A stretch of 62,216 nt of DNA from Methanobacteriota archaeon (lineage in GTDB: Archaea; Thermoplasmatota; Poseidoniia; Poseidoniales; Poseidoniaceae): the NCBI GenBank assembly GCA_002699425.1, contig PABV01000034.1, positions 35,970-98,185 of the forward strand. The letters are read 5' to 3'. Below, piece by piece: positions 40,728-49,127 of the stretch. The notes below the pieces were generated by a model. The model had not been told where the DNA came from. It saw only the letters and a program-made list of their open reading frames with translations, and ran no database searches. The number at the start of each line of letters is the position of its first letter. The stretch's first letter is position 1. A program made the translations under genes and the position numbers.

Positions 40728-43637
40728 TTGGTACGCATGTCTTCTCAAGATTGGCATTCAATTGATAATAATGACTTGTACGATATTTTGGATACTTCTC
40801 CAGAGGGTCTTTCCTCGAAAGAAGTTGAACTGCGTCAAATAAAATACGGTGCAAACAAACTTGAAGAGCCAGAAAAAACACCTGCAATCCTTAGATTCCT
40901 GTCTCAATATAACGATCCTTTGGCGATTATTCTTATGCTTGCAGCAGTTTTGGCGCTCGCCATTCATCCAGATAAACCAGGAGATGCCATCTTTATTTTC
41001 ACAGTACTTACTGCCAATGCATTTTTTGGATTTTGGCAAGAAAACCAAGCAGAGCAAGCGATGGATGCACTCAAGAATATGGCTGTTTCCAATTGCACAG
41101 TCCTTCGAGATGGGATTGATTGTGATATTTCTACACGTGAACTCGTACCAGGAGATATCGTTCGACTTGAACAGGGATTAAATATCCCAGCTGATATCCG
41201 AATTATTGAATCTCTCCGATGTAAAATCGATGAATCAGCATTAACAGGAGAGCCTGAAGCCATCATGAAAACATCAGAAGTTATGGAAAAAGATACAATT
41301 CTTGCCGAACGAGACAATATGGCTTACATGGGGACTGTCATGAGTTCAGGTAGAGGTACAGGAATCGTTGTGAGAACTGGTATGTTAACAGAACTAGGAA
41401 AAATTGCATCAGATATTGCATCGGCAGAAACACCCAAGACGCCACTTGAATTGAAACTAGAAAGCCTTGGAAAGTTCCTTACTTATATCGCATTCGTTGT
41501 AGCAGTTCTTCTTATTTCACTCAAAGTCATTGTTTCGTTAGGCATTGATAATATCAACTGGAGGGATTTAGTTCTCGAACAGGTTATTATCGCTATTGCC
41601 ATTGTTGTAGCGATTGTACCAGAAGGTTTGCCGATTATTTTGGTAACAACATTAGCCATAGGTATGAGAAATATGGCTCGGCACAAAGCAATCGTTCGGA
41701 GAATGAAGGCGGTTGAGACGTTAGGTTCAACCACCGTAATTTGTACAGACAAAACTGGTACACTAACTAAAAATCAAATGACAGCGACTGATTTTTCACT
41801 TTTAAATGACCGATTTGATGTGACTGGCAAGGGATTTTATCCCGAAGGCGACATATTTCTTAAAGGGACTGAGGGAGACGAACCGACATTGGTTGATTCT
41901 CAATCAGATGTGTACAAGGATAATTTAGAGTATCAATTGGCATCTGCTGCTTTGAGTCTTTGTCAAAATAGTCATGTTTCTTTAGTCGATGGAGAACTCA
42001 TTACCACTGGCGATCCAACAGACTTGGCTTGCGCTGTTTTGGCATGGAAAGTAAAGGGAGATTTAGAAGAGTTTCAATCATCTAATCCGCGATTAAAAGA
42101 ATATTTCTTTGATTCGAAGAGGAAAAGAATGTCTGTAGTTCATGAATATAATGAAGAAAAGTGGTTGTTTTCAAAGGGTTCAGGCTCTGGATACGCAGGA
42201 TTGCTTCAATGGAAAATTTCAAACAACAGTATCGTCAAACTGGAAGAAGATGATTTGAATCAATTTAATGAGTATAATGACAAATTGGCGAGTGAGGCAA
42301 AAAGAGTACTTGTATTGGCAGCGAGAAGAGTAACAGAAGATGATGATCTAGACGATGAAGTTAGTATGGAATCTGATTTAATCCTACTCGGTCTTGTTGG
42401 GATTATGGATCCACCAAGAGAAGAAGTTCACGATGCCATTGCTAAGTGTCAGAAAGCTGGAATTAAAGTCAAAATGATTACAGGAGATCAAGCACTCACG
42501 GCTCTTGCTATTGGAAAAGAGTTGAACATTGTTGAATCTGATGAGGTATCACTAACTGGTAGAGATCTTGAATCTATGGATGATGAAATAATCGATGAAG
42601 CCATAGGAGAAACGGATGTGTTTAGCCGCGTAACCCCGGAGCAGAAAATGAAGATTGTGAGCTCCTTACAAGAACAGGGAGAGGTAGTTGCTATGACTGG
42701 AGATGGTGTTAATGACGCTCCAGCTTTATCTCGTGCTAACATTGGTATCGCGATGGGAGTTTCAGGTACAGATGTTGCTAAAGATGCTGCAGACATGGTT
42801 TTGCAAGATGATAACTTTGCAAACATAGTCAATGCAGTAGAGGAAGGTCGGAAGATATACACCAATATCAGAAATTTCGTTCGTTACCAGGTTTCAACAA
42901 ATATAGCCGCAGTCGCCTTAATCGTCATATCAACATTGATTTTTGGCTGGAATTTACCATTAACTGCAACCCAAATTCTTGTGATAAATATCCTCATGGA
43001 TGGCCCACCTGCTGTCGCTCTTGGAGTTGAAGATAATCATAAAAACGTGATGGAAAAACCTCCTCGACCAGTTGATGAGACATTACCTAATCTCAAAGAT
43101 GTGGGGCTGATTTTCTACCTAGGTATCGTTATGGTTATTGGTACATTAGTCGTTTACTATCTAGCAGGTGGCGGTCTTCCAGACACACCTTGTGAGGGTG
43201 CATTACCGGCCGGAGATGATGCTGCATCTCAGTTCATCTTAGATGATGGTAGTTGTGATGAAACTGCATGGAATCAATGGTATAATGATCATACAAAACA
43301 TGCAATGACAATGGCATTCGCTGTATTTATTGTATATCAATTATTCAATGTTCTTAATTGCCGCTCAAGTGAAAATAGTGTTTTCAAAATTGGTCTATTT
43401 TCAAATCGATTCATTTATGTGGCGATTCTGATTTCAGTAACATTACTTCTATTTGCGGTTCAAGGTGCAAATGTTACCGTACCATTTACGGATTTTGCAT
43501 TCGGAGAATTACTTTCCACAAAGACGATTAGCATGTATGATTGGCTGATTATTCTGGCAGTTTCATCTTCAGTATTTGTTATTGAAGAGTTCAGGAAGTT
43601 GCTTGTAGCCAGAGGATTCTTTAAAATTAGAAGATAG
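40728..43637 (+). CDS. P-type cation ATPase, calcium-pump type
   Basis: A 969-residue P2-type ATPase. The phosphorylated aspartate is D341 in CTDKTGTLTK, with TGEP in the actuator domain and GDGVNDAP in the hinge. The helix 4 motif VPEGLP and the helix 6 motif INILMDGPP (Asn and Asp present, Met where SERCA has Thr) resemble calcium pumps of the P2A/P2B groups, so Ca2+ export is the best guess; Na+ or Mn2+ cannot be excluded. About ten transmembrane helices are present. The TTG at 40728 has a near-ideal AAGGAGG six bases upstream. The ATG at 40737 is the alternative start. Confidence 0.92.
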   Translation: MVRMSSQDWHSIDNNDLYDILDTSPEGLSSKEVELRQIKYGANKLEEPEKTPAILRFLSQYNDPLAIILMLAAVLALAIHPDKPGDAIFIFTVLTANAFFGFWQENQAEQAMDALKNMAVSNCTVLRDGIDCDISTRELVPGDIVRLEQGLNIPADIRIIESLRCKIDESALTGEPEAIMKTSEVMEKDTILAERDNMAYMGTVMSSGRGTGIVVRTGMLTELGKIASDIASAETPKTPLELKLESLGKFLTYIAFVVAVLLISLKVIVSLGIDNINWRDLVLEQVIIAIAIVVAIVPEGLPIILVTTLAIGMRNMARHKAIVRRMKAVETLGSTTVICTDKTGTLTKNQMTATDFSLLNDRFDVTGKGFYPEGDIFLKGTEGDEPTLVDSQSDVYKDNLEYQLASAALSLCQNSHVSLVDGELITTGDPTDLACAVLAWKVKGDLEEFQSSNPRLKEYFFDSKRKRMSVVHEYNEEKWLFSKGSGSGYAGLLQWKISNNSIVKLEEDDLNQFNEYNDKLASEAKRVLVLAARRVTEDDDLDDEVSMESDLILLGLVGIMDPPREEVHDAIAKCQKAGIKVKMITGDQALTALAIGKELNIVESDEVSLTGRDLESMDDEIIDEAIGETDVFSRVTPEQKMKIVSSLQEQGEVVAMTGDGVNDAPALSRANIGIAMGVSGTDVAKDAADMVLQDDNFANIVNAVEEGRKIYTNIRNFVRYQVSTNIAAVALIVISTLIFGWNLPLTATQILVINILMDGPPAVALGVEDNHKNVMEKPPRPVDETLPNLKDVGLIFYLGIVMVIGTLVVYYLAGGGLPDTPCEGALPAGDDAASQFILDDGSCDETAWNQWYNDHTKHAMTMAFAVFIVYQLFNVLNCRSSENSVFKIGLFSNRFIYVAILISVTLLLFAVQGANVTVPFTDFAFGELLSTKTISMYDWLIILAVSSSVFVIEEFRKLLVARGFFKIRR

Positions 43638-43680: not shown

Positions 43681-44901
43681 ATGCCAGACACATTCGAGTC
43701 AACCACCATTTTGTCTGGTAGTCACGAACACTGGAGAAATCGATTACCTCCTGCTAAAGAGAGTTGGCCGCAATCAGTCAAAATCGCACATCAGCAAATA
43801 TCAACAAACCAATCTATAACCGTTGAACAAGGATTGAATCTCTTCGATGAACCGAATTTGCACGCAATTGGCGAACTGGCTCACAACATCAAAACAGCAC
43901 GTTTCGATCAGAACGTTTTTTTCAATTCAAACGTTCACATTAATCAAACGAATATTTGCACCCTTGCATGCAGATTTTGTGCATTTAGGAGAGGGAGGCG
44001 TGCAGAAGACGCATATGCACTTACGATAGAAAATTACCTTGAAGAATTAGATAAGTATGCCCAATCTGTTGATGAAGTTCACTCTGTTGGAGCGCTTCAT
44101 CCTGATTGGGACGTGGAATACTATACGGAATTATTTAAGTCAGTGAAGCAGCAACATCCCAAAATTCACATTAAGGCGTTGACAGCAGTCGAAGTAAAAC
44201 ATATCGCCAAATTGTCAAAATTAGATGTGAGGAGTTTGCTGAATCAATTAAAAAAGGCAGGATTAGGCTCGCTCCCAGGAGGTGGTGCTGAAATTCTTGA
44301 TGATGAAGTCAGGGAGAATATTTGCAAAGGTAAAGAGACGACAGCAGAATATTTAGAAATTCACCGAATTGCTCATGAACTTGAAATTCCCACTAATTGC
44401 ACCATGTTGTTTGGGACCATTGAATCATCCTTGCATCGTGTAAAACACCTTTTTCATCTTCGTGACCTTCAAGCCAATACCAATGGATTTCAGTGTTTTG
44501 TACCATATCCATTTCTTCCTGACGACTCCCGCTTACCTGATGCACAATTGGCTACTGGTAATGAGATACTTAGAACAATTGCGATATCAAGAATTATTCT
44601 TGATAACATTCCCCATATCAAAGCATATCGAATGAATATTGGTGATTCTCTGTCAGAATTGGCTTTGCAATATGGTGCTGATGATGTTGACGGTATTGTT
44701 CAGCAAGAACAGATTATGCATTTAGCCGGTTCCAATACAAACCTTCAATCATCGCTTGCTGATCTTGCAAAAATAGTTGTTAATGCTGGCGGTATTCCTG
44801 TCCGAAGGAATTCAACTTATACTAAGTTTGAGTTATTTGATACAAACCCGGTGACGTCTCGAAATTTACCGCGTGTTCGTACCTTAAAGGTGATTCAATG
44901 A
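43681..44901 (+). CDS. mqnE: Aminodeoxyfutalosine synthase (radical SAM, MqnE-type)
   Basis: A 406-residue radical SAM protein. The [4Fe-4S] site is C93, C97 and C100 (CTLACRFC), followed by the GSLPGGGAEI and TNCTMLFGTIES segments of the MqnE/MqnC/CofH group. The LEIHRIAHEL and MLFGTIES stretches look more like MqnE than MqnC. MqnE joins 3-[(1-carboxyvinyl)oxy]benzoate to SAM to give aminodeoxyfutalosine, the second step of menaquinone synthesis by the futalosine route. mqnA follows with an ATGA overlap, which supports the assignment. GGA precedes the ATG. Confidence 0.88.
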   Translation: MPDTFESTTILSGSHEHWRNRLPPAKESWPQSVKIAHQQISTNQSITVEQGLNLFDEPNLHAIGELAHNIKTARFDQNVFFNSNVHINQTNICTLACRFCAFRRGRRAEDAYALTIENYLEELDKYAQSVDEVHSVGALHPDWDVEYYTELFKSVKQQHPKIHIKALTAVEVKHIAKLSKLDVRSLLNQLKKAGLGSLPGGGAEILDDEVRENICKGKETTAEYLEIHRIAHELEIPTNCTMLFGTIESSLHRVKHLFHLRDLQANTNGFQCFVPYPFLPDDSRLPDAQLATGNEILRTIAISRIILDNIPHIKAYRMNIGDSLSELALQYGADDVDGIVQQEQIMHLAGSNTNLQSSLADLAKIVVNAGGIPVRRNSTYTKFELFDTNPVTSRNLPRVRTLKVIQ

Positions 44902-45689
44902 AACATTGGGAATCGACACTTGGCCGTGTATCATTCATCAATTGCGACCCACTCTACCATGGCATCTCCAAAGAATGGAATACCATAGTAGCACCTCCCT
45001 CTTGGCTGACGGGTCACTTACTGAGGCGTGATTGCTTGCTTGCACCAATTCCAGCGGCGGATTACGCAGCCCACTTTGAAGAACTGGTACTTATTCCTGA
45101 CATCGGTATCTCAAGTCGTGGTGAAGTAGGAAGTGTCTTGTTATTTGGAAACCGCCCTATAGAAGAAATGCGAGATATTGCCTTTCCATCGGATTCATCA
45201 ACATCCGTAAAATTATTGAAACACATTTTAGAATTGAAGAATTTGAATCCCCGACCAATAAACATGGGCCCTGATTTGGAAACAATGCTTGATCGATGTG
45301 ATGGTGCTTTGTTGATTGGTGACAGAGCTCTAAAATCAGCAACTGAATCACCTTCCAGAGTGGTAATGGATTTAGGTGCGGAATGGTTTAACCAAACGAA
45401 CCATCCGATGGTGTTTGGTGTATTTGCAGCAAGACGTGATACTAGTTTAATCCATCTTAAGAGAGCACATCAAGCACTTATTAGACAGTTGGAGTTATTT
45501 GAAACTCACCCAAATCACCGTACAGAATCAATTGCTGAGAGTTCACGTCAATCAGGCCAAACAATAGAAAGATTGCAATCATACTTTGGCGAGGTTATCA
45601 ATAGAATGTGGCCGGAAGATTATGAGGGGCTAGGTCATTTCCTCAAGTTTGTTTGTGAAATTGATGCCGATTTACAATTCGCATGGTGA
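44898..45689 (+). CDS. mqnA: Chorismate dehydratase MqnA
   Basis: A 263-residue periplasmic-binding-protein-like enzyme. It begins with LGRVSFINCDPLYHG and contains the IPAADYAAH, ISSRGEVGSVLLF and SSTSVKLLKHIL segments typical of MqnA. It dehydrates chorismate to 3-[(1-carboxyvinyl)oxy]benzoate, the first committed step of the futalosine pathway. Its product is the substrate of MqnE encoded just upstream, with which it is translationally coupled (ATGA). Only three bases separate its stop from that of the convergent gene. Confidence 0.92.
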   Translation: MKHWESTLGRVSFINCDPLYHGISKEWNTIVAPPSWLTGHLLRRDCLLAPIPAADYAAHFEELVLIPDIGISSRGEVGSVLLFGNRPIEEMRDIAFPSDSSTSVKLLKHILELKNLNPRPINMGPDLETMLDRCDGALLIGDRALKSATESPSRVVMDLGAEWFNQTNHPMVFGVFAARRDTSLIHLKRAHQALIRQLELFETHPNHRTESIAESSRQSGQTIERLQSYFGEVINRMWPEDYEGLGHFLKFVCEIDADLQFAW

Positions 45690-45692
45690 TAA

Positions 45693-48164
45693 TTAGTCAT
45701 CATTGGACACCTTACGTCGTTTCACAGTCCGCTTCTTGCCCTCACTAGTTCCGGCTTTATGCTCTTGTTCTGGTTTCTTTACTGCTCTTTTCTTTCGGAC
45801 TGGCGCTACACCTGTTGAGGTTTGAGTGACTGCTTTAACTCTCTTTTTTGCCACCTTGGATACATTTTCACCCGTTGGACGAATTATTTTCTTCTTTGAA
45901 ACTATGGCTGGAGCTTCAATCACATCTTCTTGTATATATATTTCTGAATCTTCAGACTCTTCTTCATATTCTACTTCTTCTTCCTGATCTTGTTTGTCTA
46001 ATCGCTTCTGAACCTCATCAAGAGCCATTTCAAACTCTTCAAGGTCAATAACGCCATTTCCATCCACGTCAATACTTGTGATGAGTGCTCTCAATTGCTT
46101 GAGCGGCAAGTCAGCAATGCGTAGAGAACGCAATCCCTTCAGTAATTCATCTGATTCAAGTGTTCCACTAGAATCAACATCAAATTTATTGAACAGCGCA
46201 TGAACTGTGTAAGCGTTATTGACCATATATTCATAGATTTTATCCATGACATTGTCGAACACAAAGAGAGCACCACAATTGGAACAGTTTAGGGCATCAG
46301 AGGGGTTTATGGTTTCGCAAACTTGACATTCTTGTGAGTTTATGAGGGACATGTCTATTGAATTTGATTTTCTCATCCAAAGAACCACCAGGATAATCAA
46401 GAAGGCAAGAGTTGATGCAATTACCAGTGGGTGAGATAGTTTCGAAATTATTTCATCATATACAGATGGCTGAGCCTCTTGTTTCTCCTCAAACGTACCT
46501 GAAACTTCTTCCATTTGAATGTACCAAGTTGGTAAAGAAAATTCAGTGACTAAATCACCCGTCCCAGTGACCAAAATCGGATGGTGTGGAGCCATCCAGA
46601 GTAACGTTCCTAACGGAGCTGATGATTGTCCACTCAGGGTAAAATCAAGAGGAAATGTCGGTGAAGAGGTAAGGTCATATGTTACTGCAACTACAATATG
46701 CAAGGGTGTTGAAAAATCTTTGTCATCCCAAACAAGCATCCCATCTGCAATTCGACAAGATACTGTAGCATTTTCAAGAGAGCCACTGGAAATGTCAAAA
46801 CTATCTTTCCAAAATAGTATGAGATCTTCGTGGTTAATGCTATTGCAAAGTGTTTCTGAAAACAATGTCACCTCTGATTTAGATATTTTTCCATCATCTT
46901 TCAATCCTATTCTTGAATGGTTTCTGATATCTGTGCTTACATCTGATGGTAACTTCAAGTGGTCTTCAATAATCAGTTCATTTTCACTTACAACGATGTT
47001 AATTTTACGGATTCTTTCCAAGTCTGGTACTGTTGAGCAGGGGAGGTTTGATTGACAATTGATATCGAATATGTCTGGGATGCCATCACCATCATCGTCC
47101 ATGTCATCACTATCTGGAATCCTATCACCGTCTATATCAGCACCTGGTTTTCCAGTTGAAGGATCCAAAACATTTTGCCTATAAACTACCACTTGATCAG
47201 TTCCTGTTACCACAAATAATTGGTCGATACGATTGTATGTGTCCAGTATTATTTGATAATCCAATACCGAGTGGAAAAATTCAATTTCTGTTGATGAAAT
47301 TTCTGTTTCCAAATCAATCTTCATCACTTTGGGATTATCCCCTATGACGGAAAGATAGATTGAGGATGAATCATCATTGGAGATATGAATTTTTGCAGCT
47401 CCAGCGAAGATACCATATGACTTTGAAGAATTATCTACAAAGTTGTACCGTAGTAATTCCCCATCTTCGCTCAAGATGAAATATGTCTCATCAGCTAAAC
47501 TAAAATGACAATCCAAAACCGAATTTGAATTAGTTAATTTATTGTGCTCGCCTACCGGATGGGCAGTTTCGTTTCTAAGAGTAAAATATCCTTGGTCAGT
47601 GGCAGATATGATGTAATCTCCACTTGGAGAATATTCTAGGCATGATAAATCACTTGTATGAGGTGATGTGATGATTTGCTCACCCTGCATAAGAGTTGAA
47701 TTTCCAAGTAAAATTCCACCATTTTTTTCTTCGGAAATCAACGTCATTCCATCAGGTGACCAAGAAAGAAGAGTTGGATATATGCGGCCTTGCAGATTAC
47801 CATCGATAGTCTCTAACTTTTCCATGTCGAAAGTTCTAATGGAACCAATTAGGTCGGACGATGGAGTAACATGCCCAACTGCAAGGATTGTTCCATTTGG
47901 ATTGAAAGCCATGCTCGTAACGGCATAAGCCGTTGAAAACTGAGCGATTTTTGATAAATTTGTGGTGTCGTATATTGCCACAATGTTATCCAAACCTACA
48001 GCCATCATCGACTGGTTAGGATTTAAGACTACTACTTTAGATGACTTGGTAAGATTACTCGGCTCTGTTGAGTCGTAATATGCAAGACTTGAAGTACCAA
48101 CTGGAACAAATAATAAGCTAATAAGTACGACAACAACGATGCCTCTTGTTGCTTTGACTTTCAT
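45693..48164 (-). CDS. Membrane protein: external propeller, cytoplasmic zinc ribbon, EF-hands and basic tail
   Basis: An 823-residue protein. In order: signal peptide (1-28); WD40-like beta-propeller (about 30-330); a thrombospondin type 3-like Ca2+ stretch (about 335-365); a beta-rich region; a transmembrane helix (about 578-600); a zinc ribbon CQVC...CSNC (about 613-632); two canonical EF-hands with loops DVDSSGTLESDE (about 665-676) and DVDGNGVIDLEE (about 699-710); an acidic linker; and a Lys/Arg-rich tail of about 60 residues. By topology the EF-hands and tail face the cytoplasm. A sensor linking surface events or Ca2+ to the cell interior is inference. Start ATG with GATAGG directly before it. 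Confidence 0.75.
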   Translation of the reverse strand: MKVKATRGIVVVVLISLLFVPVGTSSLAYYDSTEPSNLTKSSKVVVLNPNQSMMAVGLDNIVAIYDTTNLSKIAQFSTAYAVTSMAFNPNGTILAVGHVTPSSDLIGSIRTFDMEKLETIDGNLQGRIYPTLLSWSPDGMTLISEEKNGGILLGNSTLMQGEQIITSPHTSDLSCLEYSPSGDYIISATDQGYFTLRNETAHPVGEHNKLTNSNSVLDCHFSLADETYFILSEDGELLRYNFVDNSSKSYGIFAGAAKIHISNDDSSSIYLSVIGDNPKVMKIDLETEISSTEIEFFHSVLDYQIILDTYNRIDQLFVVTGTDQVVVYRQNVLDPSTGKPGADIDGDRIPDSDDMDDDGDGIPDIFDINCQSNLPCSTVPDLERIRKINIVVSENELIIEDHLKLPSDVSTDIRNHSRIGLKDDGKISKSEVTLFSETLCNSINHEDLILFWKDSFDISSGSLENATVSCRIADGMLVWDDKDFSTPLHIVVAVTYDLTSSPTFPLDFTLSGQSSAPLGTLLWMAPHHPILVTGTGDLVTEFSLPTWYIQMEEVSGTFEEKQEAQPSVYDEIISKLSHPLVIASTLAFLIILVVLWMRKSNSIDMSLINSQECQVCETINPSDALNCSNCGALFVFDNVMDKIYEYMVNNAYTVHALFNKFDVDSSGTLESDELLKGLRSLRIADLPLKQLRALITSIDVDGNGVIDLEEFEMALDEVQKRLDKQDQEEEVEYEEESEDSEIYIQEDVIEAPAIVSKKKIIRPTGENVSKVAKKRVKAVTQTSTGVAPVRKKRAVKKPEQEHKAGTSEGKKRTVKRRKVSNDD

Positions 48165-48257
48165 CCTATCAATGTTCCCAGAGAGTAGAACTATGAAAGC
48201 ATGTTGTTAAATTTTTCAAAACAAGACCTTTTGAGCAGAAGTCGCCCGCATAATCAC
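48165..48257. promoter_or_regulatory. Divergent promoter region upstream of mqnD
   Basis: The 93-base spacer holds an AT-rich GTTAAATTTTT around 48206-48216, about 42-52 bases before the mqnD ATG at 48258. This is a plausible TATA box with a start of transcription some 20 bases before the ATG. It also argues against the upstream in-frame ATG at 48201. No clear element is seen for the leftward gene. Confidence 0.3.
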
Positions 48258-49127
48258 ATGGCACTAAACAATGAGAGGAGGAAAATCATCATTGGACACT
48301 CGCCCGACCCCGATGATGCATTTATGTTCCATGCCTTGACCAACGAAAAATTTCCAACTGGAAACATTGAGTACCAGCACAAGTTAATGGATATCGAATC
48401 CCTTAATGGATTAGCCAAAGAAGAATCACTAGAGGTTTCTGCCGTTTCAATTCACGCTTACCCGGAGATTGCGCACAACTATGCTCTCATGAATTGTGGA
48501 GCTTCCATGGGCGAAGGATACGGTCCAATGATTGTTTCAAAGAAAAACATCACATTAGAGGATGTTAAATCCAATGTAATAGCAATTCCTGGAATAAAAA
48601 CTAGCGCCTTTTTGGCACTACGTTTGTGTTGGGGGGATTTTGAGTATCAAGTTGTTCCATTTGATGAGATCATTCCTCGAATTGTCTCGGGTGAATTCAC
48701 ATCAGGCTTGATCATACATGAGGGCCAACTAACATACAAAGACTCTGACCTTGATGTACATCTGAATCTAGGCGAATGGTGGAACGAGATCACAGGCGGA
48801 TTACCTCTTCCGCTTGGTGGCAATGTGGTCAAAAAATCTCTGGGAATGAAAATGGTCGAGCAGATAACCGAAGATACGAAAAAGAGTATCCAATATGCAT
48901 TGGAACACCCTGCTGAAGCCTTGGAATTTGCTAAAAAGTGGGGTCGTGGAATTGATGATACTACCAACAAAGAGTTTGTTTCAATGTATGTAAATCAGCG
49001 AACAATTTCATATGGAGAGGACGGAAGAGAAAGCATCCGTTTGTTCATCTCAATGGGTCAAGAAATCGGCCTAATCCGCGAAGATTTCGATGTTTCTTCA
49101 ATCGAGTTCATTGGCGCGGAGGCTTAG
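48258..49127 (+). CDS. mqnD: 1,4-dihydroxy-6-naphthoate synthase MqnD
   Basis: A 289-residue periplasmic-binding-protein-like lyase. It has the family opening GHSPDPDDAFMFHAL, the SIHAYPEIAHNYALMNCG segment and GLIIHEGQLTY with the catalytic histidine. It cleaves cyclic dehypoxanthine futalosine to 1,4-dihydroxy-6-naphthoate in menaquinone synthesis. The ATG at 48258 is preferred over 48201 because family members begin just before GHSPDPDD. It is separated from mqnEA by the opposite-strand propeller gene. mqnB and mqnC are not in the window. The next gene begins two bases after its stop. Confidence 0.93.
   Translation: MALNNERRKIIIGHSPDPDDAFMFHALTNEKFPTGNIEYQHKLMDIESLNGLAKEESLEVSAVSIHAYPEIAHNYALMNCGASMGEGYGPMIVSKKNITLEDVKSNVIAIPGIKTSAFLALRLCWGDFEYQVVPFDEIIPRIVSGEFTSGLIIHEGQLTYKDSDLDVHLNLGEWWNEITGGLPLPLGGNVVKKSLGMKMVEQITEDTKKSIQYALEHPAEALEFAKKWGRGIDDTTNKEFVSMYVNQRTISYGEDGRESIRLFISMGQEIGLIREDFDVSSIEFIGAEA

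What the first reader, a model, noticed from the sequence alone, without database searches (positions are those of the whole stretch)
45693..48164. Transmembrane sensor-like protein with cytoplasmic EF-hands and basic tail
The architecture joins an external propeller and calcium-binding repeats to a cytoplasmic zinc ribbon, two textbook EF-hand loops and a Lys/Arg-rich tail. Paired canonical EF-hands on the cytoplasmic side are rare in archaea. A calcium-pump-type P-ATPase is encoded 2 kb away. Together they hint at a calcium-responsive membrane signalling protein.
Basis: partly seen in the sequence, partly recalled or inferred. Interest (0 to 1): 0.6.

Follow-up and report, generated by a model that had tools for sequence, protein, structure and literature searches.

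The report
Archaeal receptor with grafted EF-hand module
A surface protein that nearly all genera sampled from one family of a marine archaeal order carry has, in only two lineages, gained a calcium-binding EF-hand module on its inner side, and relatives have grafted similar modules onto the inner faces of their respiratory complex I and ATP synthase, which hints at calcium control of membrane machinery in archaea.

Summary
Window 45693-48164 (-) encodes an 823-aa protein of Candidatus Poseidoniales: signal peptide, seven-bladed WD40-type propeller, Asp-rich (TSP3-like) calcium repeats, second ectodomain, one membrane helix, CxxC/CxxC ribbon, two canonical EF-hands, acidic/basic disordered tail. 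AlphaFold2 models propeller and EF-hand pair confidently; the six ectodomain cysteines and the positive-inside rule put the EF-hands in the cytosol.

The gene is an old syntenic locus of the order, but 45 of 51 orthologues lack ribbon and EF-hands; only the window's genus and one genus of the sister family have them. The extracellular Asp repeats are invariant instead. The P-type ATPase linkage is equally conserved where EF-hands are absent. Yet the EF pair is the most constrained part of the protein in this genus (dN/dS about 0.01).

The module is a shuffled cassette. Every sampled genome of family f1 carries EF-hand pairs (typically 6-8), mostly cytosolic; the rest of the phylum almost none. 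Related cassettes are spliced cleanly into NuoL (one genus, 8/8 genomes) and A-type ATP synthase subunit I (another genus, 8/8), and terminate a COX1-like protein and an amino-acid permease. I found no earlier report of these fusions. Calcium binding and regulation are untested.

The parts
45693..48164 (-). Whole gene, 823 aa single-pass membrane protein (propeller receptor-like)
   Evidence: AlphaFold2 mean pLDDT 81, pTM 0.68; syntenic orthologues
48090..48164 (-). N-terminal signal peptide, residues 1-25
   Evidence: sequence MKVKATRGIVVVVLISLLFVPVGTS; hydrophobic N-terminal segment also in the orthologues printed
47169..48083 (-). Seven-bladed WD40-type beta-propeller, residues 28-332, outside the cell
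   Evidence: Pfam WD40 35.7 bits vs cut-off 27; Foldseek 5yzv E 3.8e-19, TMt 0.83; C175 and C219 conserved in at least 90%
47064..47144 (-). Asp-rich TSP3-like calcium repeats, residues 341-367
   Evidence: D343 D345 D347 D354 D356 D358 G359 D360 invariant in 44 orthologues
46434..47057 (-). Second ectodomain, residues 370-577
   Evidence: AlphaFold2 pLDDT 86; weak fold match to metal-binding periplasmic domains (HupE/UreJ-2 Ang-1, ZrgA; E 1e-4, TM at most 0.49); C370 C376 R386 R414 E431 C440 P529 invariant, C470 nearly so
46365..46433 (-). Transmembrane helix, residues 578-600, containing the membrane-edge Arg-Lys at 597-598
   Evidence: helix 579-600; hydropathy 2.6
46275..46328 (-). CxxC-x10-CxxC (ribbon-like), residues 613-630
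   Evidence: sequence; all four Cys invariant among EF-bearing orthologues; low model confidence; absent from the 45 other orthologues
46005..46214 (-). EF-hand pair domain, residues 651-720
   Evidence: Pfam EF-hand_7 2e-11; AlphaFold2 pLDDT 90-95 over most of it; dN/dS 0.010
46146..46181 (-). EF loop 1, residues 662-673 (DVDSSGTLESDE)
   Evidence: canonical ligands at 1, 3, 5, 9 and 12
46035..46070 (-). EF loop 2, residues 699-710 (DVDGNGVIDLEE)
   Evidence: canonical ligands at 1, 3, 5, 9 and 12
45696..46004 (-). Disordered cytosolic tail, acidic (721-755) then Lys/Arg-rich (756-823)
   Evidence: pLDDT below 50 for 731-823; least constrained part outside the signal peptide, dN/dS about 0.18
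40728..43637 (+). P2-type cation ATPase (neighbour, not shown to be functionally linked)
   Evidence: best hit PMR1-type Ca ATPase but below the equivalog cut-off; linkage conserved also where EF-hands are absent
43681..49127 (+). Futalosine-pathway genes around the target: MqnE/CofH-like radical SAM, MqnA-like (before), MqnD-like (48201-49127, after)
   Evidence: syntenic in the order, gone from the locus in genus g5 (G005, G022) while the target stays

Best explanation
What it is (shown): a Poseidoniales type I membrane protein of an ancient syntenic locus, with an external propeller, external calcium-type Asp repeats and a cysteine-containing second domain. In the window's genus and one genus of the sister family it also carries a cytosolic ribbon plus EF-hand pair between membrane helix and tail. 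The module is a shuffled cassette: closest relatives sit in a conserved ribbon/EF-hand two-helix protein about 24 kb away. How it works (inferred): the ectodomain binds a surface or polymer ligand and needs sea-water calcium for rigidity; the cytosolic EF pair changes shape on binding calcium and so gates docking of the adjacent acidic/basic tail on a cytosolic partner. In this order, lineages have repeatedly added such cassettes to the cytosolic side of membrane machines, including NuoL and ATP synthase subunit I, plausibly to make them responsive to cytosolic calcium.
For: Domain anatomy and topology. Orthology by synteny. Cassette only in g1 and g19, monophyletic 100/100 against the ribbon/EF paralogue, while propeller and second-ectodomain trees keep g1 inside family f1 and apart from g19. 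EF pair under the strongest purifying selection, 1 change in 70 residues, dN/dS 0.010 against 0.04-0.07 for propeller and second ectodomain and 0.18 for the tail. Order-wide expansion: EF-hand pairs in 42/42 f1 and 32/35 f2 genomes but 1/163 of the phylum outside the class. Independent grafts onto cytosolic loops: NuoL in g9 only, ATP synthase subunit I in g11 only, both inside a pre-existing His/Asp-rich loop; COX1-like protein, amino-acid permease, amidohydrolase-TM-EF.
Against: No calcium binding is measured; EF-hands can bind magnesium or be purely structural. Most orthologues manage without the cassette, so it cannot be the core function. No cytosolic partner or calcium channel is identified. 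No gene-context link specific to EF-bearing copies was found. The NuoL and subunit I cassettes are of a different subtype from the window's, so a common circuit is not shown.
Confidence: 0.5

Rival explanations
1. The EF-hand pair is a constitutive, metal-loaded protein-protein docking or stabilising module (calcium- or magnesium-filled at all times), not a switch; cassettes tie membrane proteins to each other or to the ribbon/EF paralogue.
For: EF-hand pairs commonly pair with each other (general knowledge); nearly all f1 genera have a multi-EF membrane protein (ZEF) that could serve as a hub; constraint fits either role.
Against: The loops keep full calcium ligand sets, including the first-position Asp and twelfth-position Glu, in NuoL, subunit I and the window's protein, which pure scaffolds tend to lose (as the permease's first loop has).
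Confidence: 0.3
2. The neighbouring P-type ATPase and the EF-hand protein form a dedicated calcium-homeostasis pair.
For: 2 kb apart and linked across the order.
Against: The linkage is just as tight in orthologues without EF-hands; the two genes are on opposite strands with menaquinone genes between them, and stay linked in genus g5 where those are gone.
Confidence: 0.07
3. The cassette was ancestral to the order and lost at least six or seven times, rather than grafted into two lineages; it is then a relic kept in a few genera.
For: Cassette divergence between g1 and g19 is similar to that of the vertically inherited paralogue, by eye (sequences); same locus in both.
Against: Needs many parallel clean losses; dN/dS 0.010 shows it is not decaying in g1. 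The history does not affect what it does now.
Confidence: 0.15
4. The EF-hands lie outside the cell (inverted topology).
For: None beyond the lack of an experiment.
Against: Signal peptide, six conserved ectodomain cysteines, Asp-rich repeats on the other side, Arg-Lys at the inner end of the helix; related cassettes in NuoL and subunit I sit at positions that are cytosolic in known structures (general knowledge).
Confidence: 0.03

Closest known systems
Bacterial calmodulin-like EF-hand fusions (surveyed in PMC7016017, Front Genet 2020)
   Same: EF-hand dyads fused to membrane and redox proteins, suggesting calcium-flux control
   Different: That survey names bacterial fusions (7TM, heme oxygenase, NO synthase, NADPH oxidase and others) and states there is no evidence for coordinated use in any single bacterial clade; no NuoL, ATP synthase or propeller-receptor fusion and no Poseidoniales example is named in the section read
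Poseidoniales 'calcium-binding domain' family modules (PMC9258230, BMC Biol 2022)
   Same: Notes Poseidoniaceae- and Thalassarchaeaceae-specific protein-family modules with calcium-binding domains, possibly for signalling
   Different: Two sentences; no architectures, topology, cassette shuffling or bioenergetic hosts described in the passage read (supplements not readable here)
EF-hand-regulated mitochondrial energy proteins (plant/fungal NDH-2, glycerol-3-phosphate dehydrogenase, aspartate-glutamate carriers; general knowledge)
   Same: EF-hands attached to energy-metabolism membrane proteins, giving calcium control
   Different: Different host proteins and side of the membrane; no homology beyond the EF-hand; here the hosts are complex I NuoL and the ATP synthase stator subunit
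STIM-type transmembrane calcium sensors (general knowledge)
   Same: Single-pass protein with EF-hand and a basic segment in the tail
   Different: STIM EF-hands face the calcium store, not the cytosol; no propeller; no sequence relation claimed
Archaeal surface-layer propeller protein (PDB 1l0q)
   Same: Extracellular propeller in an archaeon; found by Foldseek (rank 33)
   Different: YVTN propeller with PKD domains, no EF-hand tail

Membership tests
EF-hand domain pair (PF13499) | Two helix-loop-helix units over the curated score | tested here: met
   44.5 bits vs 30; four helices modelled at pLDDT 90-95 over most of the domain
EF-hand domain pair (PF13499) | Canonical 12-residue loops with ligands at 1, 3, 5, 12 | tested here: met
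   loops 662-673 and 699-710, conserved in all six EF-bearing orthologue copies
EF-hand domain pair (PF13499) | Calcium binding | not testable with these tools
   needs calorimetry or luminescence on residues 605-725
WD40 beta-propeller | Repeat score and seven-bladed fold | tested here: met
   35.7 bits vs 27; Foldseek E 3.8e-19 to a WD40 domain
Thrombospondin type 3 repeats | DxDxDGxxDxxDxDDDGDG pattern and curated score | tested here: inconclusive
   Asp pattern invariant in 44 orthologues; no TSP3 model among the 25 of 33 families shown
Zinc ribbon (DZR/RanBP types) | Two CxxC knuckles and curated score | tested here: inconclusive
   Cys pattern present and invariant among EF-bearing copies but DZR 14.4 bits vs 27.3 and pLDDT below 50
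Orthologue family of the locus | Synteny and ectodomain homology | tested here: met
   same gene block in 20 loci of two families, apart from local losses and strand flips
Orthologue family of the locus | Cytosolic EF-hands as a family trait | tested here: not met
   absent in 45 of 51 orthologues
P2A calcium ATPase (neighbour) | Equivalog-level match to a calcium pump | tested here: not met
   690.5 bits vs 798.3 for PMR1 type, 593.8 vs 703.4 for SERCA type; still the closest families

The most novel reading that the evidence does not exclude
Poseidoniales run a lineage-specific cytosolic calcium control system in which a mobile EF-hand cassette is spliced, genus by genus, onto different membrane machines (surface receptor, complex I, COX1-like protein, ATP synthase, amino-acid permease), so that respiration, ATP synthesis, transport and surface sensing answer to one cytosolic calcium signal: a coordinated EF-hand system in a prokaryotic clade.
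Probability: 0.28. Interest if true: 0.88.

Novelty: new variant of a known kind. Interest (0 to 1): 0.6.

Why it matters
Whether archaea use calcium as a cytosolic signal is an open question. Here one abundant marine order has an EF-hand repertoire found almost nowhere else in its phylum, mostly on cytosolic faces of membrane proteins, with genus-specific grafts into NuoL and ATP synthase subunit I that differ from their EF-less orthologues by an insertion of roughly 90-110 residues. That gives ready-made natural comparisons (with and without cassette) for calcium control of bioenergetic complexes, a parallel to EF-hand control of mitochondrial energy metabolism.

Tried and rejected
Calcium-pump/EF-hand pair idea: rejected, linkage is independent of EF-hands and strands oppose. 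Glycosylation-sequon enrichment as topology evidence: not found, 235 sequons in 51 ectodomains vs 274 in shuffles. Independent capture of the cassette by g1 and g19 from their own paralogues: not supported, the receptor cassettes form one clade at 100/100. Ectodomain identity by Foldseek: only weak matches to metal-binding periplasmic domains, TM at most 0.49, not used for function. Literature searches for EF-hand with NuoL, Marine Group II, Poseidoniales, Thermoplasmata gave only PMC9258230 as relevant. The cassette tree with all hosts has few columns and many unresolved forks; only starred groupings are used. The solved-structure search with the COX1-like protein was swamped by its EF-hands, so its heme and copper ligands were not checked.

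Full report
CHECK OF THE OBSERVATION. The reading frame 45693-48164 on the minus strand codes for 823 residues. Pfam places an EF-hand pair at 655-712 (E 2e-11, above the curated cut-off), WD40 repeats in the N-terminal third (E 1e-8) and only sub-threshold zinc-ribbon hits at 610-632. The EF loops are DVDSSGTLESDE (662-673) and DVDGNGVIDLEE (699-710). AlphaFold2 on an alignment of 44 orthologues gives mean pLDDT 81: a propeller, a second ectodomain, one membrane helix (579-600) and a four-helix EF domain are confident (the EF domain at 90-95 over most of its length); the ribbon (602-630) and the tail (731-823) are not. Foldseek on the model finds WD40 propellers at E 4e-19. Signal peptide, six conserved ectodomain cysteines (C370, C376 and C440 invariant; C175, C219 and C470 in at least 90% of rows) and Arg-Lys at the inner end of the helix put the EF-hands in the cytosol.

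WHERE IT COMES FROM. The window lies on a 145-kb contig of a 1.9-Mb assembly. Named relatives are marine Euryarchaeota MAGs, one of them labelled Candidatus Poseidoniales, an order of Thermoplasmatota with the families Poseidoniaceae and Thalassarchaeaceae. The tool's unnamed families f1 (own) and f2 probably are these two (inferred).

ORTHOLOGUES AND THE FATE OF THE EF-HANDS. The gene block OPT-type transporter, P-type ATPase, MqnE-like, MqnA-like, target (opposite strand), MqnD-like, HEAT protein, small zinc protein, primase small subunit is kept across both families, apart from local gene loss and strand flips, so orthology is secure. Of 51 orthologue proteins examined, 45 have no CxxC ribbon and no EF-hand after the membrane helix, only an acidic then Lys/Arg-rich tail; the six that have them come from the window's genus (G000, G001) and from f2 genus g19 (G073 twice, G102, G151). 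What is invariant instead is the extracellular Asp repeat (D343 to D360), C370, C376, R386, R414, E431, C440 and P529. Propeller and second-ectodomain trees keep g1 inside f1, next to g10, and apart from g19. The cassettes of g1 and g19 nevertheless form one clade (100/100), separate from the cassette of a ribbon/EF-hand two-helix protein (here called ZEF) found in nearly all f1 genera sampled and encoded about 24 kb from the target. So the cassette spread either by exchange between lineages or by one old gain with six or more losses; the data do not decide. In the window's genus it is not decaying: between G000 and G001 the EF pair has dN/dS 0.010 (69 of 70 residues identical), propeller and second ectodomain 0.04-0.07, the tail about 0.18 (synonymous sites are partly saturated, so ratios are approximate).

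A LINEAGE-WIDE PATTERN. EF-hand pairs at E 1e-6 occur in 42/42 f1 genomes (median about 7 matches), 32/35 f2 genomes, 2/5 other genomes of the class and 1/163 other genomes of the phylum (the last three counts worked out from the order of the listing); of 14 control genomes only Caulobacter rings. Most of those I read are cytosolic by hydropathy and domain order: ZEF, the C-termini of an amino-acid permease, of a 2-helix protein and of 5-7-helix proteins, and soluble proteins; a ZnuA-like secreted protein is an exception. Three hosts are bioenergetic proteins or their relatives. (i) ATP synthase subunit I: matches with the cassette only in genus g11 (8 of 8 genomes; one copy cut by a contig end); in the other genera the matches break at about 319/413 and abut on the contig, i.e. 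the cassette is an insertion; V_ATPase_I and EF-hand models both match. (ii) NuoL of complex I: cassette only in genus g9 (8 of 8), elsewhere the matches break at about 460/550 and abut; TIGR01974 above cut-off. (iii) A 654-863-residue multi-helix protein in the f1 genera sampled, one member of which matches COX1 at E 3e-15, with a C-terminal cassette and sometimes a SAP domain. In NuoL and subunit I the cassette sits in the middle of a His/Asp-rich loop that EF-less orthologues already have. By established complex I and V/A-ATPase topology these loops are cytosolic (general knowledge, not tested). Cassettes of NuoL and subunit I nest among those of the COX1-like protein (99/96), whereas the window's cassette is of ZEF type, so there were at least two donor subtypes.

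MECHANISM. Shown: anatomy, topology signals, cassette distribution, selection. Inferred: the cassette binds calcium (or magnesium) and changes or fixes the position of the tail next to it. The most likely reading, at about even odds, is a calcium-gated docking module added to a pre-existing surface receptor; the main rival is a constitutive metal-loaded scaffold. The calcium-pump neighbour adds nothing, because it is linked to EF-less orthologues too.

PRIOR ART. PMC9258230 mentions Poseidoniales modules with calcium-binding domains in passing. [quoted passage not shown] I found no report of EF-hands in NuoL or ATP synthase subunit I, within an open-access library only.

VERDICT. A correct observation, a half-right interpretation, and a better finding behind it: repeated, genus-specific grafting of EF-hand cassettes onto cytosolic faces of membrane proteins in one archaeal order.

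Noticed in passing
L148-L155 (e.g. G011:C1:672970-675384): A/V-type ATP synthase subunit I with an EF-hand pair cassette inserted in its His/Asp-rich cytosolic loop, only in genus g11.
   Followed up: yes
L158-L165 (e.g. G031:C38:4945-7557): NuoL of respiratory complex I with an EF-hand pair cassette inserted in a His/Asp-rich loop, only in genus g9.
   Followed up: yes
L123, L135-L140, L146, L181-L183: COX1-like multi-helix protein with C-terminal EF-hand pair in the f1 genera sampled; some copies add SAP and helix-hairpin-helix-like stretches (L146, L183), odd for a membrane oxidase relative.
   Followed up: partly
L127:664-2328, L114, L116: Amino-acid permease with a cytosolic C-terminal EF-hand pair (first loop degenerate).
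   Followed up: partly
L184, L185: Extracellular amidohydrolase-like domain, one membrane helix and a cytosolic EF-hand pair: same architecture logic as the window protein with another ectodomain (by reading; not scanned against Pfam).
   Followed up: no
window 43681-49127; L101, L110: Futalosine (menaquinone) genes mqnE/A/D flank the target in most genomes but are gone from the locus in genus g5, where the target and the ATPase remain.
   Followed up: partly
tails of orthologues, e.g. L052, L047, L105, L067: Recurrent short motifs in the otherwise disordered tail: a DW-Y-G-DG-Y-like block and a C-terminal MD-AL--L motif, both missing from the window protein; possibly docking motifs.
   Followed up: no
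L102 and L109 (G073): The g19 genome G073 holds two near-identical copies of the target locus on different contigs (strain mixture or duplication).
   Followed up: no
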